The notes beneath the pieces are model-generated. The model saw nothing but the letters and a program-made list of their open reading frames with translations. It ran no database searches and was not told the DNA's origin. Below, in pieces: positions 38,881-57,508 of a stretch of 64,000 nt of DNA. The DNA is taken from positions 682,001 through 746,000 of the forward strand of contig NZ_JARDUB010000001.1 of NCBI RefSeq assembly GCF_029360665.1, given 5' to 3'. The position numbers and the translations under genes are program-made. The stretch is from Eudoraea chungangensis. GTDB lineage: Bacteria > Bacteroidota > Bacteroidia > Flavobacteriales > Flavobacteriaceae. How positions within the stretch are numbered: the first letter of the stretch is position 1; each line of letters begins with the position of its first letter.

Positions 38881-39062
38881 TTTGGGTTACCACAGGATTT
38901 TTAATAATGCTTATCGCAAAATTTCTGTCACGGTCCTTATGGTAGTATTCTATCTTATGCTCCTTAAGCATCTGATTTTTTTCTGAGATAAATGTACTTT
39001 ATCAAAAGTGCGAAAATAAAAACCGTAACCATTTATTAATAAATGAATTACGGCTTTAATTT

Positions 39063-39075
39063 GTGGTCCCACCTG
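39063..39075. repeat. attL core GTGGTCCCACCTG
   Basis: Thirteen bases identical to the 3' end (acceptor stem and part of the T stem, reverse complement) of the tRNA at 57,497-57,570. The integrase gene starts 181 bases to the right. The flanks also match loosely, both cores being preceded by a CCGTAA...TTACGG hairpin. Confidence 0.8.
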
Positions 39076-39255: not shown

Positions 39256-40521
39256 ATGGCTTCCGTAAACTATTTATATCGATCTACAAAACCGGTCGGA
39301 CCGCTGACCATTAGATTATTATTCAGAAATAATAATGTTGATGAAGTTTTTGCTGCTAGAACTAGATGCATAGTCCCTAAAGAATACTGGGAAAAACATC
39401 ACAATTCTAAAAGATTAAAAGAAGCAAAAATGAAATCATTAAAGGTTAAAGTGGATAGGGAATTATATGAATTGGAAACACATATACTTGAATCCTTTCA
39501 TGCTACTTCTTTCGAGCTATTAGACAAAAATTGGCTTATCAGTACCGTGGACGCCTTCTACAGGCCACAACTGGAAAACAATCTTTCTAATACCCCGCTA
39601 CTAGAATATATTGATTCCTATATTCGATTTAAAGGCAGTGATTTAGCCAACAGCACAATCAAAAAATATGGTGTGGTAAAAGGTATGCTTTCTAAGTATG
39701 AAACTTTCATTGGTAAAAAGTTGCATATAAATCAAATTGATTTGTCTTTCAAACAAGGTTTTGAAACCTACTGCCTCGATGATGGTTATGCAATAAATAC
39801 GATTGCGAAAGCCTTAAAAATTGTCAAAACAGTCTGCAATCATGCACGTAAAAGAGGTTTGGATGTAAGTCCGGAACTTGAAGAGATTAAATTGAAATCT
39901 GTTGAAGCAGAAACACTCTTCCTTAATTTAGAAGAACTAGAAAAGATTGAGGACTTGAAAGGCCTTCCCGAATATTTGGACAACGCCCGTGACTGGCTTC
40001 TGATTAGTTGCTATACGGGCCAGAGGGTTTCAGATTTCATGAGATTTAAACCGAGTATGATTACCGCAACGACGAATAAAAGTGACAAGGAAGTATTCCT
40101 CTTGGAGTTTAATCAACTTAAGACTAATAGTCCAATTACAATCCCCTTAAATCAGAAGGTTATGAAAATTCTTAATAAAAGAAACGGAAATTTCCCTAGA
40201 AAAATAGCTGATCAGCCATATAATCGATTCATTAAAGAAGTATGTAAGTTGGCAGGACTAACAAATAAGGTGTATGGAAGCAAAAAGGTTTTGGTTGACA
40301 AACTAAGCAAAAAATGGCGCAAAAAGGCCGACAACTACGAAAAATGGGAATTGGTCACATCACATATTGGCCGTCGTACATTTGCGACAAATAACTATAA
40401 TTCAATCCCAACCACATTTCTAGCGTATGCAACTGGTCACAAAAATGAAAAGACATTTTTAACTTACATGCGCAAGAACAATAAAGATATGGCGTTAGAA
40501 CTATCAGAGTATTTCACCTAA
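39256..40521 (+). CDS. Tyrosine recombinase (phage-type integrase) of the island
   Basis: 421 aa in the Bacteroidetes integrase layout: an arm-binding-like N-terminal strand region, a SAM-like core-binding helix domain (LLEYIDSYIRFKGSDLANST), and a catalytic domain. The catalytic Arg is in SCYTGQRVSDFMRF (about residue 257), HxxR in TSHIGRRTFATNNY (about 371-374), His in ATGHKNEKTF and the Tyr nucleophile in LTYMRKNN (about 404). It lies beside attL and presumably catalysed insertion at the tRNA. Confidence 0.93.
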   Translation: MASVNYLYRSTKPVGPLTIRLLFRNNNVDEVFAARTRCIVPKEYWEKHHNSKRLKEAKMKSLKVKVDRELYELETHILESFHATSFELLDKNWLISTVDAFYRPQLENNLSNTPLLEYIDSYIRFKGSDLANSTIKKYGVVKGMLSKYETFIGKKLHINQIDLSFKQGFETYCLDDGYAINTIAKALKIVKTVCNHARKRGLDVSPELEEIKLKSVEAETLFLNLEELEKIEDLKGLPEYLDNARDWLLISCYTGQRVSDFMRFKPSMITATTNKSDKEVFLLEFNQLKTNSPITIPLNQKVMKILNKRNGNFPRKIADQPYNRFIKEVCKLAGLTNKVYGSKKVLVDKLSKKWRKKADNYEKWELVTSHIGRRTFATNNYNSIPTTFLAYATGHKNEKTFLTYMRKNNKDMALELSEYFT

Positions 40522-42883: not shown

Positions 42884-45850
42884 TCATTTCCACCAATTAA
42901 CCTCTTCGCCAGTGATTTGTTTATAATCAACTTTAGTCAAATAAAAATGTTTTTTGGCACAATCAATTTTCCTTTTTTCATTTGGGAACTGTAATAAATT
43001 CGGATTCACATTACCTTTGGTTTCGCGAACTAGTTCCAGTCTAAATTTCTTGTCTTCATCCCAACGAATTATTCCCCAATCAGGATTGTAATTCCCAATT
43101 ATTTTAGGAAGTGAAATCTTGAATTGATTTGGGAATTTGAAGAAGCAAATGATCTGATCATCTTCAGTCAATTTGTATTCTACAAACTTTCGTTCAATGT
43201 CAGAGTCGATTTGAACTTGATTGTATAAGGACCAATCTGCACCGTCCACCAATTCCTTTTGAGGGAATTTTCTGCTCTCAGGGAAAATTTCCTCAGGCGG
43301 ATAATCCATCAATTCCTCTGTTAAGGTGTATTCCACTCTGTCTGCGATATGGTCTGCCAACGTGTTCTTGATGGAATCAATAAAAACAGAAGTAAAGCCC
43401 TCTGGATTCTTAAATATCTTTTCCTTTACGTCATTAGAGAGCCCCTTAAAAATCTCAACAAGCGTATTCTTTTTCAAATGAGTTGCTTCTTCGGCTCGTT
43501 GAATAAAGTTAAATACTGGATAGGTCGTTTGTGCTTCTTGTCGATATCGAGGATCTCCTTTTTGGCCTTTCTCACTTGAGAATGTAACAGTTTCGCCAAC
43601 ACGAAGAATCCCTTTGTCAGCAAATGTGATTTCGGAATGTTCTTCTTCTGCGTTAATGTCCACAATCTTGAATCCTTTTAAGCGATCATCTTTTGCGATT
43701 TTGGCTAAATCATCTCCCTTCTTAAAATTTAGTTTGAAAAGTTCTTCATTTCCGTCTGAATCGGCTTTGCGTATTTCCAACTTAATCGTTTCTCCAACAA
43801 CCCCATTTAAAGTGATTTCAAATTTGGTCATTATGAAACGACCTTTTACGACCACAATGTTTGGTTCTGGAAATTTTTGACCATTGAGTTTTGCTATGCA
43901 ATTCTTTATCAATACTCCATTATCAATATTGATTTCGTAAGTTGTTTTCTTGCGAAGCTTCTTCCAAAAGCTCTTAAAGCCTTCTGAGTTATAGATTTCA
44001 TTATTTCTTTTCGCAGCTGATTTTGATGCATTTGATGGGCTTGGTGGCGCAACATCACCACTTTCAAGATAATCACTCTGTAATTGCTCGCAATAGCTCT
44101 CATAGCTCTCATTAGCGATTATCGTGAGTACGTTTACACCTTCGTCTGTTGCACGTTTACCATCTTGATCAACTGAAATTCTTAAACCTCTTCCTATTTC
44201 TTGTCTTTTCCTTCTTTCAGAAGTTGCATTATTGAGTGTGCATATTTGGAAGACATTAGGATTGTCCCATCCTTCTTTTAAAGCGGAATGCGCGAAGATG
44301 AAGCAAATCTTTTCATCAAAGCTCAGCAACCTTTCTTTATCTTTCATGATTAGGTTATAAGCAGCTTTTTCCAATTCTTTTTCACCTTTTGTCTTCCTTT
44401 CAATTCCCGTATCTACAAACTCGTCAGGTTTTCCTTTTCTCACTTTTTTAGCGAAATAACCTTCTCTTACATCACTTGCAGAATAGCCTTGATAGAAAGG
44501 ATAACTTGTTTTTATGTTTTCAAAAGCTTCATCAAATAGTTTCTTGATAATACCATCATTCTCAACGTAGTTGGCAACCTTGTCGATGAAGAAGAGGGAG
44601 AGTACTTTTACTCCTTTTCCTAAAACTTGCTTTTGTTTGATCATGTGGGCCTTGATCGTCTCTTCGATCTGGACCCTGAAGATTTCTTCTTTTGAAAGTG
44701 TTACGTCGCCACCTTCAGCAACTTTATATTCTGTTCCGTTGGTAAAAACTACAACGCCATCTTTCTTATTGATTTCATCAATTTCAAGATCCTTGAAGTT
44801 TTCGTTACCTGTCTTTTCAAAAAGATCATCTCCTTTCTTCAGGTTTACAGTTTCAGTCTGCATCACTCCATTCTTCAAAACATTTAATCTTGCTTCAAGA
44901 CCTAAACCATATCCGGCTTTTCCTTCCTTCAATATCAAGGAAAGTTGATTGTCATTGTAGTTATTTTGCTCCGTTACACCCAACACTTCAATCTTCTTCA
45001 CCAAGTTTTGTTGAAATGCATCAACAGGAGTAAGGTTATAGAATCGATTCATCAATTCCCGATTATCCTCAGTTGTTTTTCCTGTCTCTTTTGGAGTAGC
45101 AGAATACTTGATTGCGAAAAGTGGGTTTAAGGTTCTCAGAGCCTCTTTCGATTTTGCACTCACATAGTTTTGTGACTCATCCAATAATATAATCGGTCTT
45201 GTTTCTTGAATATATTGGTAGGGTAATTTTTCCCCTTGTAATTTTTCGGTTGGTTTGAAGATCACATTCGTAGCTTTATTGAACGAATCGATTGTCATCA
45301 CCATCACTTCCACATCTGAAGATGAAGCATAGCCTCTCAGTTTACTGATCCTTTGTCCAGAATACTGTGTGAGGTTGATCGTCTCATTGTCATAGAGTGA
45401 AGCGAAATGATCTTTGGTGATGTTGAATGTTTTTATGACACCTTCGTAGATGGCCACACTCGGAACGATGATGATGAATTTCCCCCAACCATAGTTTTTA
45501 CGCAATTCATGAATGGTCCTCAAATAAACATAGGTTTTACCTGTTCCTGTCTCCATCTCACAGGTATAGTAGGGGTAACGCCATGAATCGATACCGATCA
45601 TTTCAAAACCATCATCAAAATTCAGGAACATGTCTTCTACCAAGCCGTTCTCCTTTTGGACTTCCAAGAGGTTATCGAATAACCATTCTTCATCCAACAT
45701 CTCATATTGGTCCATATTGGCGATGGTGTCATCTCCTAATTGGAAAGATGTTTCTCTCTTCGTGTAACCATTGAAGAGGCCAACGGTGCTTTCGATTGCT
45801 CTTACTTGGTGCTGTTGGTCACTCTCAAAATGTATCTTCAATTTACTCAT
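42884..45850 (-). CDS. Type III restriction enzyme Res subunit
   Basis: 988 aa SF2 helicase-nuclease. Walker A METGTGKTYVYLRT, Walker B-type ILLDESQNYVS, motif III YSATPKE, motif VI EIGRGLRISVD. A C-terminal PD-(D/E)XK-like nuclease shows NYNPDWGIIRW then LELVRETKGN. Res cuts DNA after ATP-driven diffusion between inversely oriented sites, with Mod giving specificity. It is last in an operon with Mod, a RecB-like nuclease half and a UvrD-like helicase. The first 15 codons are duplicated just upstream as a decoy frame. Confidence 0.93.
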   Translation of the reverse strand: MSKLKIHFESDQQHQVRAIESTVGLFNGYTKRETSFQLGDDTIANMDQYEMLDEEWLFDNLLEVQKENGLVEDMFLNFDDGFEMIGIDSWRYPYYTCEMETGTGKTYVYLRTIHELRKNYGWGKFIIIVPSVAIYEGVIKTFNITKDHFASLYDNETINLTQYSGQRISKLRGYASSSDVEVMVMTIDSFNKATNVIFKPTEKLQGEKLPYQYIQETRPIILLDESQNYVSAKSKEALRTLNPLFAIKYSATPKETGKTTEDNRELMNRFYNLTPVDAFQQNLVKKIEVLGVTEQNNYNDNQLSLILKEGKAGYGLGLEARLNVLKNGVMQTETVNLKKGDDLFEKTGNENFKDLEIDEINKKDGVVVFTNGTEYKVAEGGDVTLSKEEIFRVQIEETIKAHMIKQKQVLGKGVKVLSLFFIDKVANYVENDGIIKKLFDEAFENIKTSYPFYQGYSASDVREGYFAKKVRKGKPDEFVDTGIERKTKGEKELEKAAYNLIMKDKERLLSFDEKICFIFAHSALKEGWDNPNVFQICTLNNATSERRKRQEIGRGLRISVDQDGKRATDEGVNVLTIIANESYESYCEQLQSDYLESGDVAPPSPSNASKSAAKRNNEIYNSEGFKSFWKKLRKKTTYEINIDNGVLIKNCIAKLNGQKFPEPNIVVVKGRFIMTKFEITLNGVVGETIKLEIRKADSDGNEELFKLNFKKGDDLAKIAKDDRLKGFKIVDINAEEEHSEITFADKGILRVGETVTFSSEKGQKGDPRYRQEAQTTYPVFNFIQRAEEATHLKKNTLVEIFKGLSNDVKEKIFKNPEGFTSVFIDSIKNTLADHIADRVEYTLTEELMDYPPEEIFPESRKFPQKELVDGADWSLYNQVQIDSDIERKFVEYKLTEDDQIICFFKFPNQFKISLPKIIGNYNPDWGIIRWDEDKKFRLELVRETKGNVNPNLLQFPNEKRKIDCAKKHFYLTKVDYKQITGEEVNWWK

Positions 45851-45919
45851 CAGTCAATTCATTAATTGGTGCTGTTGGTCACTCTCAAAATGTATCTTCA
45901 ATTTACTCATCAGTCAATT
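45806..45919. repeat. 60-base tandem duplication covering the Res start
   Basis: 45,806-45,859 is repeated exactly at 45,866-45,919 (54 identical bases, 60-base period). The upstream copy contains its own ATG (45,910) and encodes MSKLKIHFESDQQHQLMN, 18 residues, then TGA; the real Res ATG follows three bases later (TGACTGATG). The first 15 residues equal those of Res. Confidence 0.95.
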
Positions 45920-45921
45920 TA

Positions 45922-47871
45922 TTAAATCGTTTTGATGAGCCCTTTGTCACTTAAGCGCAGTTTGTTTTGGTTGCTGATGGCACTATCCAAACAGATGAAA
46001 GTAGAAGAATTATCTAGTTCCAATTGGTCAATCAGACTTTCTTCAATTTCATCATCTAAGCAGATCAGCAGGGTGTTTGGTACCATCTCACTTTCAACCT
46101 TCACGATCTCATTGGTGCCTATTTGTGATTTAGCTTGTGAAGCATCCAATGGAAATCCTTCCAATAATATCAATTCCGTAAGCAGTTTGTTATTATTCCA
46201 GTCTTCTCTTAAAGGAGAACTATTGAAAAGGTCCAAAGAGCTTTCAAGTCGTAAGACATCTTCACTTTGAATGTCTTTCCATTTTCTATAGTTTGAAGAG
46301 GATAACTTAAAGCATTTAAACCCTTCATTGGATTCAACTTTTGAAATCACTCTTCTAATTCTTTCCTTAGTTATCTCAGAAATATTAAAAGCTAAAGAGT
46401 GATCTTTGCAAAACTCATATGCATATTTTTGCGTTTCATCATCCTTATTTAATGGTTCAGGATATTGAACTTGAATAATTTTCCTATTCTTTTTTTCGTT
46501 GATTTCTAAGTCATAAAGTGCATGTGCTGAGGAGCCAGAACCAGCAAAAAAGTCTAAAATAATATCATTATCACTCGTGGCCATTTGTAATATTGCTTGA
46601 ATGAACCCAATTGGCTTTGGGTTTTTAAAAACCCTCTTGTCAAAACCTAGCTCAACAAACTGTTCTGTACCTCTTTCGCTGTTTGCCCATTTTTGAGTCC
46701 AAGAAGATGTTGGCTTGACTCTTTTTTCATCTGTTAAATAGTCTTTTTCCATAACACCCCAAATTTTTCTGGTAGGCATTAACTTTGGAAATATTTGAGT
46801 AATATTATTTTTAGCAGTATTTAACTCCCACCTCCATCGACCTAGAGAGTTATCCGCTCTCAATGGAATAATTTCAATATACCCTGTGAGGTCCATTTTA
46901 TCTTTTGAAGGAAAAAAATCTCCAGTTTCCTCATTGTAATAAAAATAATAGAACATTGATTCTCTGTCTTCTTTACGATCCGCATCTCCAGTTTTTCTTA
47001 AATCTATTTCCCTATAAACAGCACCATCTTCGTCAGTTTTGTTATATCTCTTAATAACCTTTTCTTCTGGCTCCCATCCGTAAAATGATAAATCACTTTT
47101 CTTGAAAATAAGAACATACTCGTGTGATGTTGCTATGTATTTGTCGTCACTTCTTCCTTTCGGATTATTGATGTTCGCAACGCAAGAGATAAAATTCTCT
47201 TCTCCAAATACTTCATTCATTACCGCTCGAAGATTATGCACCTCATTATTGTCAATACTTACAAATATTACCCCATCTTCCTTTAATAAGTTTCTGGCTA
47301 AGCGTAACCGTGGGTAGATCATAGTAAGCCATTTAGAATGAAACCGACCGTCTGATTTTTTATTGGTGGTGAGTGGTTTCCCTTCTTCATCAATTTGGCC
47401 AGTTCTTCTCAAATATTCTTGCAATGGCTCAGTGAAGTCATCATCATAGACAAAATCATTTCCCGTATTGTAAGGTGGATCGATATAGATCATCTTGATC
47501 TTGTTGGCGTAACTCTTTTGAAGAATCTTTAAAACCTCTAAGTTTTCACCTTCTATGAAGATATTTTTCGAATCATTTACGCTATCATCATCTGGTGTTC
47601 CATCAGATTTCAAGCCTTGACCATAAACTGGCTCTAGTGTTCCTTCGGGTGGGATGGATGCTAATCGCCTTGCATCTTTCTTTCCTGGCCAGAAGAGACC
47701 GAAATGTTCCAAGTCGCCATCTTCTTCATCTTGTGCCCAATTGCCTAAATTTTGACGTAAGGTTTCAAAATTCAGCTTACCATCTTCAAAACACTCTGGA
47801 GCAATTTGTTTCAGTTGCTTGATTTTCTCATCATCAAACAAAAACTCAGGTTTTATTCTTTCGTGTGCCAT
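45922..47871 (-). CDS. Type III DNA methyltransferase (Mod)
   Basis: 649 aa. The beta-class order is visible: motif IV YIDPPYNTGNDF at about residue 131, a central target-recognition region, and motif I DFFAGSGSSAHAL towards the C-terminus. N6-adenine methylation is the family activity, and Mod also gives the recognition site to Res. No simple-sequence repeats suggest phase variation. It starts 17 bases after the nuclease gene stop and ends 11 bases before the duplicated Res start. Confidence 0.93.
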   Translation of the reverse strand: MAHERIKPEFLFDDEKIKQLKQIAPECFEDGKLNFETLRQNLGNWAQDEEDGDLEHFGLFWPGKKDARRLASIPPEGTLEPVYGQGLKSDGTPDDDSVNDSKNIFIEGENLEVLKILQKSYANKIKMIYIDPPYNTGNDFVYDDDFTEPLQEYLRRTGQIDEEGKPLTTNKKSDGRFHSKWLTMIYPRLRLARNLLKEDGVIFVSIDNNEVHNLRAVMNEVFGEENFISCVANINNPKGRSDDKYIATSHEYVLIFKKSDLSFYGWEPEEKVIKRYNKTDEDGAVYREIDLRKTGDADRKEDRESMFYYFYYNEETGDFFPSKDKMDLTGYIEIIPLRADNSLGRWRWELNTAKNNITQIFPKLMPTRKIWGVMEKDYLTDEKRVKPTSSWTQKWANSERGTEQFVELGFDKRVFKNPKPIGFIQAILQMATSDNDIILDFFAGSGSSAHALYDLEINEKKNRKIIQVQYPEPLNKDDETQKYAYEFCKDHSLAFNISEITKERIRRVISKVESNEGFKCFKLSSSNYRKWKDIQSEDVLRLESSLDLFNSSPLREDWNNNKLLTELILLEGFPLDASQAKSQIGTNEIVKVESEMVPNTLLICLDDEIEESLIDQLELDNSSTFICLDSAISNQNKLRLSDKGLIKTI

Positions 47872-47888
47872 CTATCTTTTAATCTTTT

Positions 47889-48731
47889 TTATCGTATTTC
47901 AGAAGGGTTAATATCATCAGGGCTTTTTGCTGCCAAATTGGCATTTACCCAGTCTTCTTTATCCGTATCAGAGCCAAAATCATCAAAGTATTTCCTAAAA
48001 CTTCCTCGTTCACCTTTTCCTTTACTAGTTGCATATTCGCGGTAAGAAGCACAAGAAAATCTTGCATCGCATTCCCTACAAATTCTTTGGCCAAATTTAG
48101 AGTTTGTCCCCTCTAAATTACCTTTCAAAGTCTCAACGGATGCAGGCTTGAATTTCTTTTCTTCGATACAATCTACGGTGTTAGCGAAGTCAGCAACAAC
48201 CTCTTTCACTTTCGCTTGATCAAAATCCAATTCAATCAAAGGATTCCATTTTGAAAGTTCATACTGTATCCTGAATTGATCATTTAAAAGGTGTGCTTCC
48301 TTGAGACCTCGGGGGTAAGCAGTTGAGATTACAGCTGTTTTATCTAATACTTGACCTCTGAGTTGTTGCCAGATATGTGCATAGACATTGAGTTGTTTTT
48401 CATACAAATCTTTATTTGACTCGATGTAAGCGGTATCATGTGTCTTGATATCGTACATCCAGGTTTCATTTTCATCTCGTACGATATCAACAATACCTTC
48501 AATGGTAAAGTTTCTCCCTTTCGGTGTTTTTTGATCGGGTAAAGTGAGTTTTACTTCCGTATCAGTGACTTTTGTAGCTACGTCACGTAATTTGGTGAAA
48601 TAATATAACACTTGCGTTAGAGCAAGTTGTTTAACATCCTCTGTTAGAGCATGCCCTCCTTCTAGTCGCATTAATTCGTAATTGTCTTCAAAGTACTCTT
48701 TTATCTTTTCAAATATTTCGTATTCTTCCAT
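47889..48731 (-). CDS. PD-(D/E)XK nuclease half, RecB/Cas4-like, with three cluster cysteines
   Basis: 280 aa. The nuclease core shows EGIVDIV (Asp82), MYDIKTHD (Asp94-x-Lys96), and EKQLNVYAHI (Gln113, Tyr117). The tail RICRECDARFSC contributes three cysteines (218, 221, 227) of a Cas4/AddB-type Fe-S cluster; the usual first Cys is absent here but present at the C-terminus of the upstream helicase. Its ATG overlaps the helicase stop (TGATG), so the two chains are probably translated in step and join to form one nuclease domain. Confidence 0.85.
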   Translation of the reverse strand: MEEYEIFEKIKEYFEDNYELMRLEGGHALTEDVKQLALTQVLYYFTKLRDVATKVTDTEVKLTLPDQKTPKGRNFTIEGIVDIVRDENETWMYDIKTHDTAYIESNKDLYEKQLNVYAHIWQQLRGQVLDKTAVISTAYPRGLKEAHLLNDQFRIQYELSKWNPLIELDFDQAKVKEVVADFANTVDCIEEKKFKPASVETLKGNLEGTNSKFGQRICRECDARFSCASYREYATSKGKGERGSFRKYFDDFGSDTDKEDWVNANLAAKSPDDINPSEIR

Positions 48732-51343
48732 CAGGCGGTTTCTTTTTTCTTCCTTTCGGAAATTAGTAAATGGTGTAAATCTTCAATAGTTTGATGCACC
48801 AAACTTCCGAAAAACATGGTTTGTGAACGTGAAGGGATGAAACAGTATTTTTTAAATAGCATATACCTTCTCGGACATTGTTGGTAATTCAAATAATCAG
48901 AAGTATAGGAATAGCTTTTGCCGAGATCATCTTCTTCTAATTTTATAAGTGGTAGCTCATCAATCTTTACCGATTCAATTATCGGATAGTTATTTTGAGC
49001 GAACATATTCTTGAAGGCTTGACTTCTTTGTTGTCGTTTCCATTGAGGAAGTATAGCCATCTGCTTGGCTCTAGATAATGCCACATAGAACATCCGCATA
49101 TTATCGAAGTGTGAGATTTTATCCAGTGGTTCTCCTTCCTTTTCAAGAAGTTCTCGAATGATGATTTCTTTTTTATCGGCTGGTCTATCGATCTTGTTCA
49201 TACTCCCGAGAACTACATATGGGAATTCAAGACCTTTAGATTGATGTATCGTAAGAAATGGGACACGTCCTTTCGGGAAGGGGTCATTTGCATCTTCATA
49301 TTCAGACTCTCCTAAACGATAGATTGCATAGAGATAAGAACCAACAAATGTATTTGCGAACTTCTTGTCTGTAAGGAATGACGCTGTGATGATTGGTGTG
49401 TATCCTTCCATGAAACGAGCAAGGTATTGTGTAACCAAACCGAGGTTACAGACAGGTCCTTCATCAATTCCTTCTTCTGCCATTTCATACATTTTCTGGA
49501 AATGTTTGAAACCGTTCAAATGATAGAATAAATCAAGCACACTCCAGTCAACTGATGTGACACGGTTTACCACATATTTCAGTGACACAGGTTGTTTTGC
49601 TTGTTGCTTCTTCTTCAGAAGCTCAAGAAAGGCTCTTTTTTGGAGTGTTGCTCTGGCTGTTTTAGATAACCCACTTGCCGAAGCTAAATCTCGAATCATG
49701 TCTAGCTTGAGATTGTTATCAAGTTTCCACTTCTTCTTATTGATGACTTTCATCAAAGCTTCATAATCCGCTTTGATCTTTTTTACCTCTTCTTGTTTGT
49801 CGGTTACATATTCCTTCAACAAACTGTCTTCAGCCATCAACTGCTCAGCATGATACATTGCACCAACTTGCCATTGACGAAAATCTCTCAATCCGCCACT
49901 TGCTTGTCCTTGATGACTCGGTCTTTCTAAAATGTGAAAGAGTAATCCAAAAATCTCAATGGCTTCTGGAATGTCTAAAAAGCGGCCTGCCCTTGGTGCG
50001 AAAATCTGAATGCCACGATCATTCAATGCATTTTCAAAATCTGCAACTGCTCCGTTTTTCGCACCTCGAAAACTCAATGAAGGGAAGAGGAAAGCTACTT
50101 GGTTGTAATCTTCAATTTTTCCTGATGATTTCAAGTCATGAACAAACTGAGCGACCTTATCAAAGACTTCAATTTTGTCAGCTCTATCCGTTGTTACTAT
50201 TGCAGAAAACTCTTCTTGATTAAATGACTGCACGTTTTTGTCAGCCACTCTATAGTGACCACTTCCATCTTTCTTTGCCCAATTAGTCTGATCAATAAAA
50301 TCAGTATAGAAGTTTACTATTTTCTTTTTTGAACGATAGTTTGTGTCAAGGTCAATTCTTGTTGGTGTTTCATTGAGATATTTTTTACTTCTTTCTTCAA
50401 ACTCTACAAGATTTTCAACTGTTGCACCTCTAAAGCGATACAATGCTTGATCATCATCCCCAACAACACAAATGTTTTTACTCTTCTTTGCTAACTCAAA
50501 GTAAATTTGTTCTTGAATTGAGTTTGTATCTTGATACTCATCTACAATGATGTAGTCGTATGCATCCTTTGATCCTTCATAGTTTTTGATTTTGTTGAAT
50601 GCTCTTTGCTGAAGCAAGGAAAAATCTATAGTGTCGATCTTCTCTCCTTTATGGCTTACACAATAGAAAGCATACATCTTCAACACTCGTTCTAAAATCT
50701 CATCATCCGTTTGATGGGCATTTGGATCTAAATTCTCTTCAGAAAAGCGATTGAATATATTGATGATGTTTGTTGCAGCATAATGTCTTGAATAGAAATC
50801 ACTACCACTGAAATACGTGTTTAATTCTCGTTGCGCAGTTTCTTCATCTTCTTCAATATTATCTGAAACCAAATAACCACCGGCACCCAAAAGCTCTCTC
50901 CAAAATGATCTTCGGTAAATCTTGAAATACTGAGCCAATGAGTCTAAAAGGATTGGTGCTTTACTTCTCACACCATCTTCAGAAAATACTCTATCTCGGT
51001 CAACCAAAATATCATGACAAATCGAATGTACTGTTCCAATGGCCATTCCTGAAATGTCATAAGGCTGCCCAGTTTCGTTCGTGATTAAGCCAAGTAAACT
51101 CCTCAGACCATCTTTCAATTGATGAGCTGCTTTTTCAGTAAACGTAGCGAGGAATATTTTCTTTGGATCAACTTGATGAAAGACTATCAAGTTTACTGTG
51201 CGCCATAGAATTACTCTTGTTTTACCAGAACCCGGACCGGCAGTCAAGAACAATGGACCTTCCGTATGAAGAATGGCTTGTTTTTGTTTTGGGTTGGGGG
51301 TAAAGTTTTTTAGATTCCAAAAGTATTCAATGGTTTTAATCAT
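48731..51343 (-). CDS. UvrD/RecB-like SF1 helicase carrying the N-terminal part of a Fe-S nuclease domain
   Basis: 870 aa. SF1 motifs: Walker A AGPGSGKTRVI (from residue 35), Q-motif KQKQAILH, Walker B VDEYQDTNSIQEQIYF, motif III VGDDDQALYRFRGATV, motif V TIHQSKGLEFPYVVLG, motif VI MFYVALSRAKQMA. The last 60 residues switch to YSYTSDYLNYQQCPRRYMLF (Cys823) and FGSLVHQTIEDLH (His850, Glu854), which is how RecB/AddB-type nuclease domains begin. The remaining nuclease motifs are in the next gene. It heads the Mod-Res operon. Confidence 0.9.
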   Translation of the reverse strand: MIKTIEYFWNLKNFTPNPKQKQAILHTEGPLFLTAGPGSGKTRVILWRTVNLIVFHQVDPKKIFLATFTEKAAHQLKDGLRSLLGLITNETGQPYDISGMAIGTVHSICHDILVDRDRVFSEDGVRSKAPILLDSLAQYFKIYRRSFWRELLGAGGYLVSDNIEEDEETAQRELNTYFSGSDFYSRHYAATNIINIFNRFSEENLDPNAHQTDDEILERVLKMYAFYCVSHKGEKIDTIDFSLLQQRAFNKIKNYEGSKDAYDYIIVDEYQDTNSIQEQIYFELAKKSKNICVVGDDDQALYRFRGATVENLVEFEERSKKYLNETPTRIDLDTNYRSKKKIVNFYTDFIDQTNWAKKDGSGHYRVADKNVQSFNQEEFSAIVTTDRADKIEVFDKVAQFVHDLKSSGKIEDYNQVAFLFPSLSFRGAKNGAVADFENALNDRGIQIFAPRAGRFLDIPEAIEIFGLLFHILERPSHQGQASGGLRDFRQWQVGAMYHAEQLMAEDSLLKEYVTDKQEEVKKIKADYEALMKVINKKKWKLDNNLKLDMIRDLASASGLSKTARATLQKRAFLELLKKKQQAKQPVSLKYVVNRVTSVDWSVLDLFYHLNGFKHFQKMYEMAEEGIDEGPVCNLGLVTQYLARFMEGYTPIITASFLTDKKFANTFVGSYLYAIYRLGESEYEDANDPFPKGRVPFLTIHQSKGLEFPYVVLGSMNKIDRPADKKEIIIRELLEKEGEPLDKISHFDNMRMFYVALSRAKQMAILPQWKRQQRSQAFKNMFAQNNYPIIESVKIDELPLIKLEEDDLGKSYSYTSDYLNYQQCPRRYMLFKKYCFIPSRSQTMFFGSLVHQTIEDLHHLLISERKKKETA

Positions 51344-51700
51344 AAGTTTTCGTTCTTAAGTAGGAATTTTCGCATATAACTAATAAAGGACGGTAATTTT
51401 TTTATCTTAAAGAAATCTATACGAACAGAAATCCATTTAGTTGGAAAAAAGTAAAAGCTGTCATATAAATTCGATTTAGATCGGGAACCGAAAAGTTATA
51501 TTTGGCAGGCCAAGGTCAAAAAAATGCTTTTTAATATGCCTGAGGTTTTTATTATTATGGCGTGCAACGTATTTGTAAATGAGTAATTGCCTGGGTTGGT
51601 ACTAAACGTTGCAAGTAAACACTAAAATTGAAATTACTGCGGAAATTCCAAAGTAGGCGAGAAAAAACAATTGCTTATGGCCATTGTTGGTGTTTGTTTT
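51344..51700. other. Gap upstream of the helicase-Mod-Res operon
   Basis: No gene is seen. It includes a perfect inverted repeat TGCAACGT (51,563-51,570) / ACGTTGCA (51,606-51,613) separated by 35 bases, possibly a terminator-like or cassette-junction structure for the neighbouring toxin-antitoxin-like operon. No exact TAnnTTTG promoter for the helicase operon was found. Confidence 0.4.
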
Positions 51701-52165
51701 TTATATAGACAATAACTTTTCATAGTCATATTTGTCATATTTCTTTATATCCTCTGTTTTCAATTTTACTATTTCGTTTTTAACTTGAACTCTATACCAA
51801 TATTCAGGTTTTGTTCGAGAAAATGAACTAATTTTTAGTACAACTTCTGAATTCAGTTTTCTTTTACCAGTTAAATATTTATGAAGGTTACTGTCTCTCA
51901 TTCCAAAATATTTAGCTAAATCTTTTTTGGAAATATCAAAGACCTTTAAGTACAATTTGACAAAATCCAAAATATCAAGAAGCTCATTTTCTTTAATGTC
52001 ATCTCTTTCAATATAGTCTTCTAGTTTATATTGGATAGAAAGAAGTTTATTTCTAATTTTTCTTTCTTTAGATTGATTATCAGAATGCTGTTTAACAAAC
52101 TCATTTATTTTGTTGAGTTTGTCATCGTTCCAAATGTCTTTAGGTAAGATTTCTATATTTTTCAT
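51701..52165 (-). CDS. Helix-turn-helix antitoxin-like protein
   Basis: 154 aa. An N-terminal helical, charged region is followed by an XRE/HigA-like HTH (ISKKDLAKYFGMRDSNLHKY then LTGKRKLNSEVVLKISSFS). The HTH is preceded by helices that could bind a toxin. It lies six bases after a GNAT-like gene, the organisation of GNAT/HTH toxin-antitoxin pairs. Antitoxin identity is inferred from the pairing. Confidence 0.65.
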   Translation of the reverse strand: MKNIEILPKDIWNDDKLNKINEFVKQHSDNQSKERKIRNKLLSIQYKLEDYIERDDIKENELLDILDFVKLYLKVFDISKKDLAKYFGMRDSNLHKYLTGKRKLNSEVVLKISSFSRTKPEYWYRVQVKNEIVKLKTEDIKKYDKYDYEKLLSI

Positions 52166-52171
52166 AACCTT

Positions 52172-52678
52172 TTAATTTAAAAATTCATTAATGAGTTTTT
52201 CACTCCCTTCAGGTAGAATAATCATTGTTGTAGAATTTTCCATTCTTACAGCATTGTATTTTTGACTATACAACTTCATTAGTTTTATCTCATTTTCTTC
52301 TTTCTCTTCGTGTACATCAAATGCAACATATCCTTCTTTTCCTTGAATGAAACTTTGTTTACAAGCAAAAGCTATTAAACAACCTGTAACTCTATCATAT
52401 CTTTTTCTATTACCTCTGTTATGCGGTGAAACTTCAACAAAAGCCATATAAACTTGATAAGGACTTTTAGTATCTATTATTAAACATCCCTCAATTATTT
52501 CAGGTGTTTTGTCGGTCGTTAAAATGTAGGTCTCGTATTCTTTCCTTTTTGAGTATTTATTAAAATTAAATCTCCATCCTTCATTCAGTGAAGGTAATTT
52601 TGATTTATTTTTTGTAATCAAATAGATTTGAGATTTAATCTCGGATTTGGTTGCTAATTCTAGGATTTTTACATTCAT
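52172..52678 (-). CDS. GNAT-fold toxin-like protein
   Basis: 168 aa. The order of strands and the segment VEVSPHNRGNRKRYDRVTGC followed by IAFACKQSFIQGKEGYVAFD resembles the acetyl-CoA-binding core of GNAT enzymes, though the classic RxxGxA loop is not exact. GNAT toxins of this kind acetylate aminoacyl-tRNA or other targets and pair with an HTH antitoxin encoded beside them, as here. A promoter with a TTGTACAA palindrome lies 20 to 50 bases upstream. Alternative: a non-toxic acetyltransferase. Confidence 0.6.
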   Translation of the reverse strand: MNVKILELATKSEIKSQIYLITKNKSKLPSLNEGWRFNFNKYSKRKEYETYILTTDKTPEIIEGCLIIDTKSPYQVYMAFVEVSPHNRGNRKRYDRVTGCLIAFACKQSFIQGKEGYVAFDVHEEKEENEIKLMKLYSQKYNAVRMENSTTMIILPEGSEKLINEFLN

Positions 52679-52697
52679 TCAAATCTTTGTTACAAGT

Positions 52698-52728
52698 CAA
52701 AGATACAAAAATTATACATATTGTACAA
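52698..52728 (-). promoter_or_regulatory. Promoter of the GNAT/HTH pair with palindrome
   Basis: Minus strand TTG, 20 bases, then TATCTTTG (52,698-52,705), a perfect TAnnTTTG. The -33 TTG overlaps a TTGTACAA palindrome, a plausible site for autoregulation by the HTH protein. Confidence 0.55.
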
Positions 52729-52748
52729 TTTTATTTTTAATGAACGAC

Positions 52749-53119
52749 AACTCGTTATAACCATGAATCTTTTCATTTCATAAAAATAATTCTATTTTTT
52801 GTGAAGGAATTAATTGGTATATAACATGTCATGCGCAATGCCATATATTTTAATCGTATTTAAACAATAACAAAGTCTAACAAAATTATAATTAAGTGAG
52901 CAAATTAAAATACTTAGCCTATATAAAGCTTGACATTTAAGTATTTATATCAGAATTCACCTTTTCACGGTGATATTCGACATAGGAAATTAGGAGTCTT
53001 ATAAATTCCGTAAAAAGACCTACATTAGTAAAGGACCAACTAATGAAAAAGGAAAGTGAATTATTTTAACCCGGGTGGGGGCTGATTCTAGAAAGTTGGT
53101 CTAAAAACTTTTAGCTTTT
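52749..53119. repeat. Long diverged repeat R1 (partner R2 at 56,989-57,378)
   Basis: Collinear blocks shared with R2 include AACTCGTTAT, CCATGAATCTTTTC, AATTGGTATATAAC, GTCATGC and AAAAACTTTTAGCTTTT. The distance between the second and last block is 342 bases in R1 and 341 in R2, so the two are homologous despite substitutions. No protein is encoded. Together with R2 it brackets the HNH/XRE and retron modules. Confidence 0.8.
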
Positions 53120-53183
53120 ACCGGAGCCGGCCTAGTCATAGTTTGGTGTGTTGTTAGTGCAATTTCCAAGATTTAGAATCAAA

Positions 53184-54179
53184 TTAACAGTAATCATCAA
53201 TGGAATCACCGCCTGTCCATTCAAGTCCTTGTTTTAGTGTAAATTGTTTTTCAACACCTACTTTTTCGAAAAACGTTCCGAGACTATCATGAATAAAAAC
53301 ATTGCTTTGGTAAGTTATCTCTGCCAAAGAATAAGGTTTTATTGGATGTTCATCACCACTTTTACACATAATCCATAATTTATCCTTGTCTTTTGACATT
53401 GCAAAATCTTCAACAATTGAACTCGTAAATTGGTTTTTAGAAAAAACGTCACCTACACTTAGATTTTTAAAATACCTGATAATTGGATGAGGTGAGTTTT
53501 CATTAGGACAAAGTGGAAATTCACTAGGTGTTTTCCAGTTTTGCGCCTTTTGGACAGCATTTGGAGATAGAGAATTTACAAACTCTAATTCCTCTATCCT
53601 AAGGTCATCAAAGTCAATTGACAGATTTCTATTATAAATCCAATCACCTAAAGTACCACCTTGTAATGGTTTGCCACTTTTAGCCCAAGCCATCAATCTT
53701 TCTTTGCATGTTTGCGCTTCTTTTTTGCTAACTCCACACATCCACTCATAGTTTGGGCTTTTAAATTTATCCCGAAATTTTGAAGGGTCAGCTAGAAAAG
53801 CCTCAACACTTCCGCAGACAAGTTCAATACGTCTTGATGTTATTGGATTGAGTATAATATTTTCTAATCTAGTAACCCAACGCAGGTTCTCTGGTCTGTT
53901 ATTATGCTTGTTTGTATCCTTATGGTCAACAACATGATGTTTTGTAAGTGGTTCTCCGTGGAATGCTGTTGCAACTATTCGATGAACTCGAACTGAAGCA
54001 ATCTCTAGATAGCCTGTCCTGACATTGGGTTTACCAAAAGTCCATTTATTGTCTGTTGGTCGAGTTCGCCTATTGTTTAGGGGATGTCGTAATATAGCAC
54101 CATTATCACGAACAGAGTAATACTCATTTTTATAATAGCATTCTTGTATGCCATTATAAGTTTCAAGTAAACTTTCCAT
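53184..54179 (-). CDS. HNH-endonuclease-like protein
   Basis: 331 aa. Residues 55-100 carry an HNH_3-like motif: VRVHRIVATAFHGEPLTKHH, then VVDHKDTNKHNNRPENLRWVT. The preceding YYSVRDNGAILRH is like the NUMOD4-type segment of homing-endonuclease relatives. The C-terminal 220 residues are unrecognised and unusually long for a simple HNH enzyme. It follows an XRE regulator gene by five bases, an arrangement seen in toxin/defence pairs. Could be a phage-defence nuclease or a selfish endonuclease. Confidence 0.78.
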   Translation of the reverse strand: MESLLETYNGIQECYYKNEYYSVRDNGAILRHPLNNRRTRPTDNKWTFGKPNVRTGYLEIASVRVHRIVATAFHGEPLTKHHVVDHKDTNKHNNRPENLRWVTRLENIILNPITSRRIELVCGSVEAFLADPSKFRDKFKSPNYEWMCGVSKKEAQTCKERLMAWAKSGKPLQGGTLGDWIYNRNLSIDFDDLRIEELEFVNSLSPNAVQKAQNWKTPSEFPLCPNENSPHPIIRYFKNLSVGDVFSKNQFTSSIVEDFAMSKDKDKLWIMCKSGDEHPIKPYSLAEITYQSNVFIHDSLGTFFEKVGVEKQFTLKQGLEWTGGDSIDDYC

Positions 54180-54184
54180 ATTAC

Positions 54185-54700
54185 CTACATTTGATTAGGT
54201 ACAATGTCAATATGGTGTCCTAAAGCAGATGCTAGCTTTGAAAGAATATCAAGCCCAACGGAATATTTACCTTGTTCAATTCTGCTAAGATTTGCAGCGT
54301 TTATATTTGTTAACCTTGCTAAGTCTTTTGCTTCAATTCCCTTTTCTTTCCGTATTTGGCGAATTTTATTTCCGATTCGAGTTCTTTCTGCTTGTTTGTT
54401 TCCAGAACTCATACCCATGAACGTCACACCATTTTGCAATAAATCTCTCCAAATATTGTTGGTCATTAATTCCTTGTCATCGGAGAAATTTTTATCAAAA
54501 ACATATTCTACTATATGCAGTTGATAATGACGAGTTTCTTCATTGGTGTAAATCCCAATCCGAGCCAATACGGAAAAAACTTCTCCATCTGGTGCAACAA
54601 CTTCGACCATTGTTTCATCAATTATTCTTGCTTTTGACTTAAATTCATGTGCTAAAAATTCCTTATCGCTTGCGAAATACTCTTTGTGTTCTTGTTTCAT
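54185..54700 (-). CDS. XRE-family regulator with unknown N-terminal domain
   Basis: 171 aa. The C-terminal third is a clear XRE HTH: IGNKIRQIRKEKGIEAKDLA and LTNINAANLSRIEQGKYSVG. The N-terminal 105 residues (starting KEYFASDKEFLAHEFKSKAR) form an alpha/beta domain with no family recognised and may bind the HNH partner or a ligand. An inverted repeat TTGGCATAT/ATATGCCAA lies 75-112 bases upstream and could be its operator. Confidence 0.82.
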   Translation of the reverse strand: MKQEHKEYFASDKEFLAHEFKSKARIIDETMVEVVAPDGEVFSVLARIGIYTNEETRHYQLHIVEYVFDKNFSDDKELMTNNIWRDLLQNGVTFMGMSSGNKQAERTRIGNKIRQIRKEKGIEAKDLARLTNINAANLSRIEQGKYSVGLDILSKLASALGHHIDIVPNQM

Positions 54701-55049
54701 ATCTTTATGTGCTGTATTTAATGTGTTGCCGCCACTTTTAAGTTATAAAGCAAATATAAAGAAATAAACCATAATTGGCATATAAAATAATTATAAATGG
54801 TAAATATGCCAATTGACAAGAATTACATATTCGGATTTTGGTGTTATGTGTTTTGTTTAGCATAGGTGATTTATCTGCTGACCGCTAAAGGTTAGGCTAT
54901 GGCAAGTAGGGCAGGCAAAGAAACGTTTCGTTTTCGTCTGCACACATAGCCAAAGCTTTTTGTTTTGTAATTTTTTTTAATTGCCAAATCCAAAAGATTT
55001 GGCGGACTTAGTAAATAAACGCAAACCATTAAATTTATCCCTTTTTGCC
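54701..55049. other. Gap between retron operon and XRE/HNH pair
   Basis: Contains the inverted repeat noted separately, a GGCTATG...CATAGCC pairing across 54,893-54,952 and a perfect GCCAAATC-CAAAA-GATTTGGC hairpin (54,983-55,003). The hairpin has an A-run after it on the minus strand rather than a T-run, so it is not a textbook terminator of the retron operon. No gene seen. Confidence 0.45.
54775..54812. promoter_or_regulatory. Candidate XRE operator, TTGGCATAT / ATATGCCAA
   Basis: Perfect nine-base arms at 54,775-54,783 and 54,804-54,812 separated by 20 bases, upstream of the XRE gene. The two-turn spacing suits dimer pairs of an autoregulator. Confidence 0.45.
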
Positions 55050-55922
55050 CTATTTGCTATAGGTGTTGTAAGGGTGCGTTTTTTTATTCGCAATTTTCTT
55101 AATGTATTTGATTCGCTGTATATGTCCATTACGTGAAGCTTCGCTTCTTAACAAATCAACTGCGCGTTCAAAAGTATGTGGCAAAGGGCTAATACCGTTA
55201 TTTTTCACTTGAACTCCGGTAACTACTGGATTGAAGGTGCAATAATGCGTTTTTTTAAAGTTAATTTTAAGTCCTCGGTTGCGCAGCTCTTCTAATATTT
55301 TCCCAGTATTTTGTTTAAAATCAATTGGACTGGAAAACGTTATGTCGTCAACGTAAATAGAAACGGTCAGTCCATCATTTATATATTTTTCAAATAGGTC
55401 ACCGCAACTATGAAAAACAACCAAAGACGCTAAGAATGATGAAGTTGGGCAACCTTGTGGTATAGCTCCTTCTTTTGTGCATATCCTATTGATTAATTTT
55501 GCCACGTCAGGATAAAACCCCTCCTTTCGTAAAGCTTTTTCAACACTAGTGAAAGCAACAGATGGATAGAAATCCTTCAAGTCAGTTAAGAAAAAGTATT
55601 TGTTTCCTTGGTGGTAGCGTGCATTAAGGACAGCATCTCTATTCTTTAAACCACCGAAAAAATATTCGGGAAGTTTTAGTTTATAAAGAACCTGTTTTAA
55701 TAATTGAGATTGTACATATTTTAATTTTGTAGTAGGGGCGTTTATTGGTCTAGTCAAAGCCATGCCATTTTCAAATCTTGGCAATCCTTTTTCGTCAGTT
55801 TTTGGTTCGTCCCAGTTGCGATAAAATCTAGTTTCATCGGCATCAATTGAAGAAGCTAATTTTATCAAAAAACATTTATCGACTTTTAATGCATAGGCTA
55901 AATCTTTGATTCTTTTTTTCAT
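55050..55922 (-). CDS. Retron-type reverse transcriptase
   Basis: 290 aa. RT motifs: LTDLKDFYPS (motif A, residues 112-121), IPQGCPTSS (156-162), and YVDD (190-193). The two features that mark retron RTs are present: NAxxH as NARYH (100-104) and VTG in NPVVTGVQVKNNG (234-236). Retron RTs copy part of a partner ncRNA into msDNA and act as anti-phage guards with an accessory effector. It follows an XRE gene by ten bases and a 79-aa protein gene, all behind one promoter. Confidence 0.92.
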   Translation of the reverse strand: MKKRIKDLAYALKVDKCFLIKLASSIDADETRFYRNWDEPKTDEKGLPRFENGMALTRPINAPTTKLKYVQSQLLKQVLYKLKLPEYFFGGLKNRDAVLNARYHQGNKYFFLTDLKDFYPSVAFTSVEKALRKEGFYPDVAKLINRICTKEGAIPQGCPTSSFLASLVVFHSCGDLFEKYINDGLTVSIYVDDITFSSPIDFKQNTGKILEELRNRGLKINFKKTHYCTFNPVVTGVQVKNNGISPLPHTFERAVDLLRSEASRNGHIQRIKYIKKIANKKTHPYNTYSK

Positions 55923-55932
55923 TTCAGATGTA

Positions 55933-57378: not shown

Positions 57379-57451
57379 CTTGAATGGACCTATTAAAATG
57401 TGACTGTTAATAAGTTCTAGCTATACAATTACCGTACAATTTTTCAAACAA

Positions 57452-57508
57452 AAATCCGTAAACATCTTTTTATCAATGTGTTACGGATTTAAGAAGTGGT
57501 CCCACCTG
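57452..57508. repeat. attR with tRNA terminator-like hairpin
   Basis: The TCCGTAA...TTACGGA hairpin (57,455-57,487) followed by the core GTGGTCCCACCTG (57,496-57,508). The left end at 39,021-39,075 has a diverged copy of the same hairpin plus core. The hairpin here belongs to the element and stands exactly where the tRNA transcript needs a terminator. Confidence 0.75.

What the first reader, a model, noticed from the sequence alone, without database searches (positions are those of the whole stretch)
48731..51343. Four-gene helicase / split nuclease / Mod / Res operon
A SF1 helicase, a RecB/Cas4-like nuclease, a type III methyltransferase and a type III Res helicase-nuclease are contiguous on one strand with tight junctions (1-base overlap, 17 bases, 11 bases). 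Standard type III systems are only Mod plus Res. Adding a RecBCD/AddAB-like machine could degrade DNA cut by Res, or give a second, methyl-sensitive arm. I know of no named system with this exact gene set.
Basis: partly seen in the sequence, partly recalled or inferred. Interest (0 to 1): 0.75.

Follow-up and report, generated by a model that had tools for sequence, protein, structure and literature searches.

The report
Restriction operon with a split helicase-nuclease
A marine bacterium carries, on a mobile DNA island, a conserved four-gene operon in which an ordinary type III restriction enzyme is joined by a DNA-unwinding, DNA-cutting machine whose cutting domain is divided between two proteins; pairings of this kind were already in print, but the divided form appears not to have been described.

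Summary
Four minus-strand ORFs form an operon: UvrD-like helicase (48731-51343), nuclease (47889-48731), Mod (45922-47871), EcoP15I-type Res (42884-45850). One correction: the true Res start lies 71, not 11, bases after Mod. 'Split nuclease' is literal: one Cas4/AddB-like nuclease domain with a four-Cys cluster motif is divided between two ORFs; the first Cys and the motif-I His end the helicase, the other motifs are in the second ORF. A scan of one genome per species gave 27 loci. In 26 the ORFs are split at the same place, with assigned overlaps of 1-20 nt in two relative frames, so this is no frameshift or error (L063 could not be scored). Mod was seen in 25 of 27, Res in 21 of 22 loci with enough flank; 22 Res rows of this set form one group apart from 40 Res without helicase-nuclease. 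UvrD-Cas4 fusions beside type III Mod-Res were published in 2017, so the association is known in kind; the split form with EcoP15I-type Mod-Res was not found in ten literature searches. Most likely role, inferred and untested: an ATP-dependent degradation arm for DNA cut by Mod-Res. New variant of a known kind.

The parts
48731..51343 (-). hel: UvrD-like SF1 helicase, 870 aa; its last ~55 residues are the N-terminal piece of the nuclease domain (Cys823, His850)
47889..48731 (-). nuc: rest of the PD-(D/E)XK nuclease domain, 280 aa (D82, D94-x-K96, Q113, Y117, Cys218, Cys221, Cys227)
48729..48733 (-). TGATG stop/start junction between hel and nuc (1-nt overlap; nuc in the -1 frame)
45922..47871 (-). 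mod: type III beta-class amino-methyltransferase, 649 aa (DPPY 131, FAGSG 442); middle part, about 200-550, highly variable (taken as target-recognition region)
42884..45850 (-). res: EcoP15I-type Res, 988 aa, SF2 motor (GTGKT 102, DESQ 224) and C-terminal PD..ETK endonuclease (923, 943)
45802..45921 (-). 60-nt tandem duplication at the Mod-Res junction; the upstream copy gives an 18-codon mini-ORF, the downstream copy holds the real Res start
39013..39075 (.). left att-like repeat of the carrying element (78% over 63 nt with 57446-57508; last 13 nt identical)
57446..57508 (.). right att-like repeat, overlapping the 3' end of tRNA-Met (57496-57570, minus strand) by 13 nt
39256..40521 (+). phage-type integrase of the element that carries the operon

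Best explanation
A type III restriction-modification system with a built-in, two-polypeptide ATP-dependent helicase-nuclease. Mod recognises and methylates an asymmetric site; Res (with Mod) cuts DNA that lacks the mark. Hel and nuc, translated in a coupled way, assemble into one UvrD-like motor carrying an iron-staple RecB-family nuclease: the first cluster Cys and the motif-I His come from hel, the other three Cys and D/DxK/QxxxY from nuc, so the nuclease should be active only in the complex. The complex then loads on the ends or single strands made by Res and degrades the cut foreign DNA, making restriction irreversible. SHOWN from sequence: gene set, divided domain, kept helicase, nuclease and cluster residues, Res nuclease motif and Mod DPPY, overlapping stop/start, co-divergence, one Res group. 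INFERRED: hel-nuc binding, the shared cluster, direction of travel, acting after Res, horizontal spread as a unit, phage as target.
For: Genes and domains. Divided PDDEXK_1; against fused relatives the cut falls in the loop after the first nuclease helix. Structure: nuc model (pLDDT 77) best Foldseek match is AddA of AddAB (4cei_A, E 1.3e-4, prob 1.00; VIA Z 8.3-8.9, also RecE 9.1, AdnA and Cas4 8.6); hel ends in helix 839-869 holding His850 and matches UvrD/PcrA/Rep, then AddA/RecB. Residues, window included: Cys823 28 of 28 hel rows, His850 27 of 28 (gap in L063); D82, D94, K96, Q113, Y117, Cys218/221/227 29 of 29 nuc rows (also invariant). Coupling: 26 of 27 loci split, nuc frame -1 in 19 and +1 in 7, an ATG giving overlaps of 1, 4, 8, 11, 14 or 20 nt. 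Association: hel beside nuc 27 of 27, Mod 25 of 27, Res 21 of 22 with enough flank. Co-divergence over 22 operons (window included): hel-nuc r 0.947, hel-res 0.957, nuc-res 0.949, mod-res 0.860, hel-mod 0.834, nuc-mod 0.820, 0 of 2000 permutations as high. Res rows of this set are one side of a branch: 100/100 against 20 Res-only rows, SH-aLRT 100 against 40. Res PD..ETK kept in 21 of 21 rows with letters, so hel-nuc adds to Res. Mod falls to 16-30% identity over residues 251-400 while hel, nuc and res are 84-86% to L039.
Against: No function was tested. Two of 27 loci show hel-nuc without Mod in view: L063 lies beside type I genes (HsdM, HsdS, HsdR-like) and L055, cut by the contig end, beside a YprA/MrfA-like helicase, so hel-nuc is not bound to type III. 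In L057 and L064 Mod lies 7.7 and 4.5 kb away, in L061 Mod-Res is upstream, in L062 opposite-strand genes intervene. EcoP15I-type enzymes restrict without such an arm, and 29 of 33 genomes of the family with an RE_endonuc Res lack the split pair. Mod motif I fits FxGxG in only 18 of 25 rows with letters. Binding of hel to nuc was not modelled (single chains only); Cys823 and Cys218-227 lie in low-confidence stretches. The genome also has an AddAB-like pair that could do the degrading.
Confidence: 0.5

Rival explanations
1. Hel-nuc is a second, independent restriction arm that uses Mod (or its methylation) as its self/non-self signal, cutting and unwinding unmodified DNA without needing a Res cut, as PMC7430649 suggested for Bad beside a type III Mod.
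For: Bad sits beside a type III Mod in Geobacilli (passage); hel-nuc also occurs beside other DNA-targeting systems: type I genes in L063, a YprA-like helicase in L055.
Against: Res is present in 21 of 22 loci with enough flank, its nuclease motif is kept and its sequences group apart, which points to joint work with Res. Mod's middle part is exchanged while hel-nuc is not.
Confidence: 0.2
2. Hel-nuc repairs or clears the host's own breaks made by accidental Res cutting: an AddAB-like safety device that protects the host rather than attacking phage DNA.
For: Fold and motifs are those of break-processing enzymes; a mobile element entering an unmethylated host would profit from such protection (inference).
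Against: The host already has an AddAB-like pair and a UvrD; 29 of 33 genomes of the family with an RE_endonuc Res lack the split pair.
Confidence: 0.12
3. Hel-nuc is a free-standing defence module that only shares transport with Mod-Res.
For: Inserted genes between nuc and Mod vary (GmrSD_N, PLDc_2, DUF4062, TIR/Argonaute-model hits and others); order is reversed in L061; L055 and L063 lack Mod in view.
Against: Correlated divergence of hel, nuc and res over 22 operons, one separate Res group, and nuc-Mod gaps of 40 nt or less in 12 of 27 loci.
Confidence: 0.13
4. The split is a frameshift lesion, a sequencing error or a programmed frameshift in an ordinary fused gene.
For: In the window the nuc frame is open 17 codons upstream and an A6 run (48743-48748) lies before the stop.
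Against: 26 loci with both frame relations (-1 in 19, +1 in 7) and an ATG within 20 nt of the hel stop; 25 split helicase rows are one side of a branch, 100/99; nuclease motifs kept.
Confidence: 0.03

Closest known systems
UvrD-Cas4-like fusion proteins beside type III Mod-Res (Hudaiberdiev et al. 2017, PMC5704561; section 8 read whole; supplements not seen)
   Same: UvrD-like SF1 helicase joined to a pfam12705 Cas4-like nuclease; Mod and Res called its most common neighbourhood. Fused relatives opened here agree: helicase-nuclease, then methyltransferase, then a DEAD/TnsA-type protein in 12 of 14 loci.
   Different: There it is one polypeptide. Here the nuclease domain is cut in two overlapping ORFs and the helicases fall on a separate side of the tree. 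The Res of 11 fused-lineage loci did not align to the window's (best E 0.002) and has a C-terminal TnsA-like nuclease in 3 of 4 checked; the split lineage has EcoP15I-type Res. The unfused UvrD + Cas4 operons of that paper are mostly in Clostridiales, without defence context.
Bad, Geobacillus DNA2-like helicase-nuclease (PMC7430649; abstract and passages seen)
   Same: SF1 helicase with an iron-sulfur RecB-family nuclease beside a type III Mod; [quoted passage not shown]
   Different: Bad is a monomer with the nuclease ahead of a 5'-3' helicase (nuclease mutant D150A, Walker A K815A); here the helicase is UvrD-like, comes first, and the nuclease is divided.
Type III systems with a third, SF2 ATPase gene 5' of mod (Murray et al. 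2021, PMC8259958; abstract and passages)
   Same: Extra ATPase gene upstream of mod-res, consistent co-location.
   Different: That ATPase has SF2 motifs and no nuclease motif; here SF1 UvrD-like plus a nuclease.
EcoP15I / EcoPI type III R-M
   Same: Res matches EcoP15I Res (4zcf_C, 2.6e-43); Mod matches 6k0w_B (1.8e-63) and EcoP15I Mod (4zcf_A, 2.4e-55).
   Different: Typical type III systems have Mod and Res only (PMC8259958, passage).
AddAB / RecBCD
   Same: SF1 motor with trailing RecB-family nuclease; AddB's has the iron staple (PMC7430649, passage).
   Different: No second large helicase subunit; nuclease halved; linked to R-M; the genome has its own AddAB-like pair.
Gabija (GajB) in PADLOC
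   Same: Helicase scores against GajB models (best 1.3e-38).
   Different: No GajA-like protein in the Pfam tables of the operon and ten neighbours; the hits are taken to reflect the shared UvrD fold.

Membership tests
Type III restriction-modification system | Mod with beta-class amino-methyltransferase motifs (DPPY, FxGxG) | tested here: met
   window has DPPY and FAGSG; over the set DPPYNTG in 27 of 27 rows, FxGxG in 18 of 25 with letters
Type III restriction-modification system | Res with SF2 motor and C-terminal PD-(D/E)XK nuclease | tested here: met
   GTGKT 23 of 23, PD..ETK 21 of 21 rows with letters
Type III restriction-modification system | Asymmetric site, one-strand methylation, cleavage needing two sites and ATP | not testable with these tools
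   needs methylome and biochemistry
UvrD-Cas4 fusion family (PMC5704561) | UvrD helicase and pfam12705 nuclease in one polypeptide | tested here: not met
   two ORFs in the window and in 26 of 27 relatives; L063 not scored
UvrD-Cas4 fusion family (PMC5704561) | Neighbouring type III Mod and Res | tested here: met
UvrD-Cas4 fusion family (PMC5704561) | Helicase monophyletic with the fusions | tested here: inconclusive
   split and fused are two sides of one branch (100/99); the only outgroup is one very long branch
Iron-staple (4Fe-4S) RecB-family nuclease | Four Cys (one N-terminal, three C-terminal) around H, D, DxK, QxxxY motifs | tested here: met
   but distributed over two chains; the cluster itself is not shown
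Bad (PMC7430649) | Nuclease N-terminal to the helicase in one chain | tested here: not met
   UvrD domains 17-763, nuclease piece 818-864 and next ORF
AddAB / RecBCD | Two large helicase-like subunits forming one complex | tested here: not met
   one UvrD-type protein in the operon; separate AddAB-like pair elsewhere
Gabija | GajA (OLD-type ATPase-TOPRIM) next to GajB | tested here: not met
   no such domain in the Pfam tables of the four operon proteins or ten neighbours; the PADLOC lists show none but are cut at 25 rows

The most novel reading that the evidence does not exclude
A distinct type III subtype in which an iron-sulfur cluster staples two separately translated polypeptides into one nuclease. 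The division could be a safety catch: helicase alone and nuclease fragment alone are inert, and DNA degradation is licensed only when both assemble with, or after, Mod-Res cutting, giving a four-protein cut-and-degrade restriction machine.
Probability: 0.35. Interest if true: 0.78.

Novelty: new variant of a known kind. Interest (0 to 1): 0.6.

Why it matters
It turns an unproved idea, that type III restriction can have a processive degradation arm, into a compact four-gene system that can be cloned and dissected gene by gene. A nuclease domain and cluster site divided between two overlapping ORFs, and kept so in 26 loci of four phyla (MAGs among them), would be an unusual enzyme design and a simple test of inter-subunit iron-sulfur assembly. 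It also shows that such 'split' helicase/nuclease ORFs can be real genes, and it marks a Res group that can be used to find the system.

Tried and rejected
Frameshift, sequencing error or programmed frameshift: rejected, two relative frames and several overlap lengths in 26 loci (overlaps depend on the start codon assigned, and L038, L043, L045, L047, L053, L057, L058 and L064 offer more than one). Phase variation by the 60-nt duplication at the Mod-Res junction: the period is a multiple of 3 and the Res frame is intact, so not an on/off switch of the usual kind; its effect on Res translation is unknown. Hel-nuc replacing a dead Res nuclease: rejected, PD..ETK kept. Accidental neighbourhood: rejected.

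Led nowhere: P0002 alone at E 1e-8 hit only the own genome among 395 of the phylum and no relative in viral contigs; with the 4-row alignment viral contigs gave one locus, L065, with nuc-Mod-Res but an AAA ATPase in place of the helicase. A profile search of nuc against solved-structure sequences gave nothing below E 0.069. P0002 in plasmids gave 5 distant hits; P0001 in phages 40 records, one of them covering 80% or more. Of the 11 of 397 family genomes matching the nuclease HMM, 6 were weak; 3 of these 6 (G118, G444, G610) were opened and hold no hel, nuc, Mod or Res relative. PMC12458937 and PMC12707154 were searched for terms (passages): one UvrD passage (ARMADA ArmD), nothing on this gene set.

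Rows dropped or limits: the 27 loci come from a scan with two peptide patterns, so they are a lower bound. The co-divergence test used 22 of 29 rows, those with all four genes; L065 was left out and L057's Res is a 126-aa fragment. The Res trees left out L057 and include L065; they were rooted at the midpoint. The helicase tree left out L038 and L044 (partial) and did not trim the nuclease tail of L042, L052 and L053. L063's helicase frame is interrupted before its nuclease helix, so it was not scored. In one search the reference letters printed beside the site numbers were wrong because a gapped alignment row had overwritten the protein; the column counts agree with the invariant lists. The 20 Res-only loci are 20 of 39 PF19778 places; all 20 lack split hel-nuc in view, but L096 has a weak partial helicase-like hit at its edge (23%). 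The 20 phylum Res are 20 of 56 places, and their lack of hel-nuc rests, not on opening their neighbourhoods. Of hits H1-H65, 13 were opened. In L003 and L014 the annotated helicase/nuclease pair is broken inside the helicase, not at this junction. dN/dS could not be read in 7 of 8 comparisons because synonymous sites are saturated; pN is 0.08-0.15 for hel, nuc and res against pS 0.80-0.90.
Full report
WHAT IS THERE. On the minus strand of the window four ORFs follow one another: hel 51343-48731 (870 aa), nuc 48731-47889 (280 aa), mod 47871-45922 (649 aa) and res 45850-42884 (988 aa). Hel is a UvrD-like SF1 helicase, mod an N6/N4 amino-methyltransferase, res an SF2 motor with the C-terminal RE_endonuc domain. 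Res matches EcoP15I Res among solved structures (4zcf_C, 2.6e-43) and Mod matches 6k0w_B and EcoP15I Mod. In PADLOC the best hits of hel are RTasHel and GajB and those of nuc DruK and Cas4, while mod and res score as type III (lists cut at 25 rows).

THE NUCLEASE IS ONE DOMAIN IN TWO ORFs. The PDDEXK_1 profile is matched from 8 to 57 by the end of hel (weakly) and from 84 to 246 by nuc. Aligned with fused relatives of about 960 aa from plasmids and a phage, the cut falls in the loop after the first helix of the nuclease domain. Cys823 and His850 are in hel; D82, D94-x-K96, Q113, Y117 and Cys218, Cys221, Cys227 are in nuc. Counting the window, they are kept in 28 of 28 (Cys823), 27 of 28 (His850; L063 has a gap) and 29 of 29 rows (invariant also). 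PMC7430649 describes this Cys pattern as an 'iron staple' spanning the domain and critical for its integrity in AddAB (passages). If a cluster forms here, it would staple two polypeptides; that is inference. The nuc model (mean pLDDT 77, low after residue 215) is nearest to AddA by Foldseek (E 1.3e-4, prob 1.00), with Z 8-9 to RecE, AddA, Cas4 and AdnA, only a little above what the tool's note gives for models without a clear match. The hel model (82) ends in a helix 839-869 holding His850 and matches UvrD, PcrA, Rep, then AddA/RecB.

THE SPLIT IS REAL. The junction is TGATG, nuc in the -1 frame, with an A6 run shortly before, so a lesion had to be considered. An HMM of the nuclease matched 11 of 397 genomes of the same family: the split form in 4 genomes of 3 genera, a fused form in 1, and 6 weak matches, of which the 3 opened are something else. 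In 26 of 27 the two ORFs lie in different frames, nuc in the -1 frame in 19 and the +1 frame in 7, with an ATG that gives overlaps of 1, 4, 8, 11, 14 or 20 nt; L063 is interrupted and not scored. Two frame relations and several overlap lengths exclude a frameshift mechanism and fit coupled translation of two proteins. The 25 split helicases in the tree are one side of a branch (100/99), 10 fused ones the other.

THE ASSOCIATION IS REAL. Around the 27 hel-nuc pairs, within the flanks held (up to 10 kb), Mod is present in 25 and Res in 21 of the 22 loci with enough flank; L038, L043, L052, L055 and L056 end too early, L063 has neither. Nuc and Mod are 40 nt or less apart in 12 of 27 loci; in others the gap is larger, mostly with one or more genes between, up to 7.7 kb, and in L061 Mod-Res come first. 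By record titles 21 hosts are Bacteroidota, 3 Chloroflexota, and one each Fibrobacterota, Bacillota (L063) and Pseudomonadota; many are MAGs. Pairwise divergence of hel, nuc and res is tightly correlated over 22 operons (r 0.947-0.957; with mod 0.82-0.86; 0 of 2000 permutations as high); permutations do not remove shared descent. Host descent alone does not explain it: the window copy is nearest to Adhaeribacter (Hymenobacteraceae) and far from the copy of Eudoraea adriatica, which the tool places in the window's own genus. In the family 33 of 397 genomes have a Res with RE_endonuc, among them all 4 with split hel-nuc. In the trees the 22 Res rows found through nuc form one group (100/100 against 20 Res-only rows of the family; SH-aLRT 100 against 40 rows without hel-nuc); Flavobacteriaceae members fall inside it, not with Res-only rows of their own family. 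So Res commonly lives without hel-nuc, and none of the 40 such Res sampled falls into this group.

WHAT THE PARTS SAY ABOUT MECHANISM. Res keeps its own nuclease motif in 21 of 21 rows with letters, so hel-nuc adds to Res and does not replace it. Between the window and L039, Mod is 82-100% identical over residues 1-200, 70-82% over 551-650 and 16-30% over 251-400, while hel, nuc and res are 84-86%: recognition regions are exchanged, hel-nuc is not, so hel-nuc need not read the site. L063 (type I genes) and L055 (YprA/MrfA-like helicase) show hel-nuc beside other DNA-targeting systems. This favours a general helper acting on cut or unwound DNA over a Mod-bound reader, but does not prove it. I therefore put most weight on a degradation arm after Res cutting (0.5), then an independent Mod-guided arm (0.2).

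COMPARISON WITH WHAT IS KNOWN. PMC5704561 (section 8 read whole) reported UvrD-Cas4-like fusions whose most common neighbourhood is type III Mod and Res, and proposed a role in defence. I found the same in 12 of 14 opened loci of fused relatives (L012 and L014 lack it), but the Res of 11 of them did not align to the window's (best E 0.002) and a TnsA-like C-terminal nuclease shows in 3 of 4 checked. [quoted passage not shown] PMC8259958 describes another third gene, an SF2-type ATPase without nuclease (abstract and passages). Ten library searches (listings seen) showed no description of the split form; that library lacks most subscription journals, and the supplements of the 2017 paper were not seen, so split members may be listed there.

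SURROUNDINGS. The operon lies on an element of about 18.4 kb between att-like repeats 39013-39075 and 57446-57508, the right one at the 3' end of tRNA-Met, with a phage-type integrase at 39256-40521 and a primase-like gene at 41733-42878. Between the operon and the tRNA are an HTH gene with a closely linked upstream partner, an HNH gene with an HTH gene, and a retron type VI-like pair (RT_VI 1.8e-58, HTH_VI 2e-31). It reads as cargo of a mobile defence island; no empty site was compared.

VERDICT. Observation confirmed with one corrected gap; interpretation partly supported; new variant of a known kind; interest 0.6.

Noticed in passing
window 39013-57508: An integrated element of about 18.4 kb: att-like repeats (78% over 63 nt, last 13 nt identical), right one at the 3' end of tRNA-Met, integrase and primase-like genes at the left end, two or more defence modules as cargo.
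   Followed up: partly
window 55050-56286: Reverse transcriptase (RT_VI, 1.8e-58) with HTH_VI partner (2e-31): a retron type VI-like pair on the same island; its noncoding RNA was not looked for.
   Followed up: no
window 52600-53119 and 56894-57378: Three related repeats (32-48 nt, 75-81%) spaced about 4260-4290 nt apart on both sides of the HNH/HTH/RT block; perhaps a duplicated segment or a unit that moved.
   Followed up: no
window 45802-45921: 60-nt tandem duplication including the Res start; leaves an 18-codon mini-ORF between Mod and Res. In L039 Mod and Res are 12 nt apart.
   Followed up: partly
window 51701-52678: HTH gene with a closely linked upstream gene of 168 aa without Pfam or PADLOC hit, directly upstream of hel; looks like a toxin-antitoxin pair or regulator.
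   Followed up: no
window 42884-45850 (Res residues 306-389 and 679-761): Two stretches of Res are alike (29% over 84 columns, E 5e-6 in a two-sequence comparison without composition correction): a possible duplicated insert of unknown role.
   Followed up: no
L041, L049, L050, L051: A protein of about 655-665 aa sits between nuc and Mod; Pfam GmrSD_N for L041, the other three resemble the protein of L032 by BLAST and were not run through Pfam. GmrSD restricts modified DNA (recalled), so these operons may cover modified phage DNA too.
   Followed up: partly
L040 5786-7228, L053 16909-18423: A PIF1-like helicase gene between Mod and Res in two loci.
   Followed up: no
L046, L056, L057, L064 upstream of hel: A ~280-310 aa gene and a ~665-670 aa gene recur upstream of hel; shown to be a PD-Lambda-5_B-like methyltransferase in L064 and a HerA/DUF87 protein in L046 and L064, by size and first residues only in the rest.
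   Followed up: no
L055 11705-14695; L063 14125-20791: Hel-nuc beside a YprA/MrfA-like helicase (L055) and beside type I HsdM/HsdS/HsdR-like genes (L063): possible use with other systems.
   Followed up: partly
L065 8298-16057: Viral-collection contig with AAA ATPase, a 366-aa protein holding the nuc half, Mod and Res, but no UvrD helicase.
   Followed up: partly
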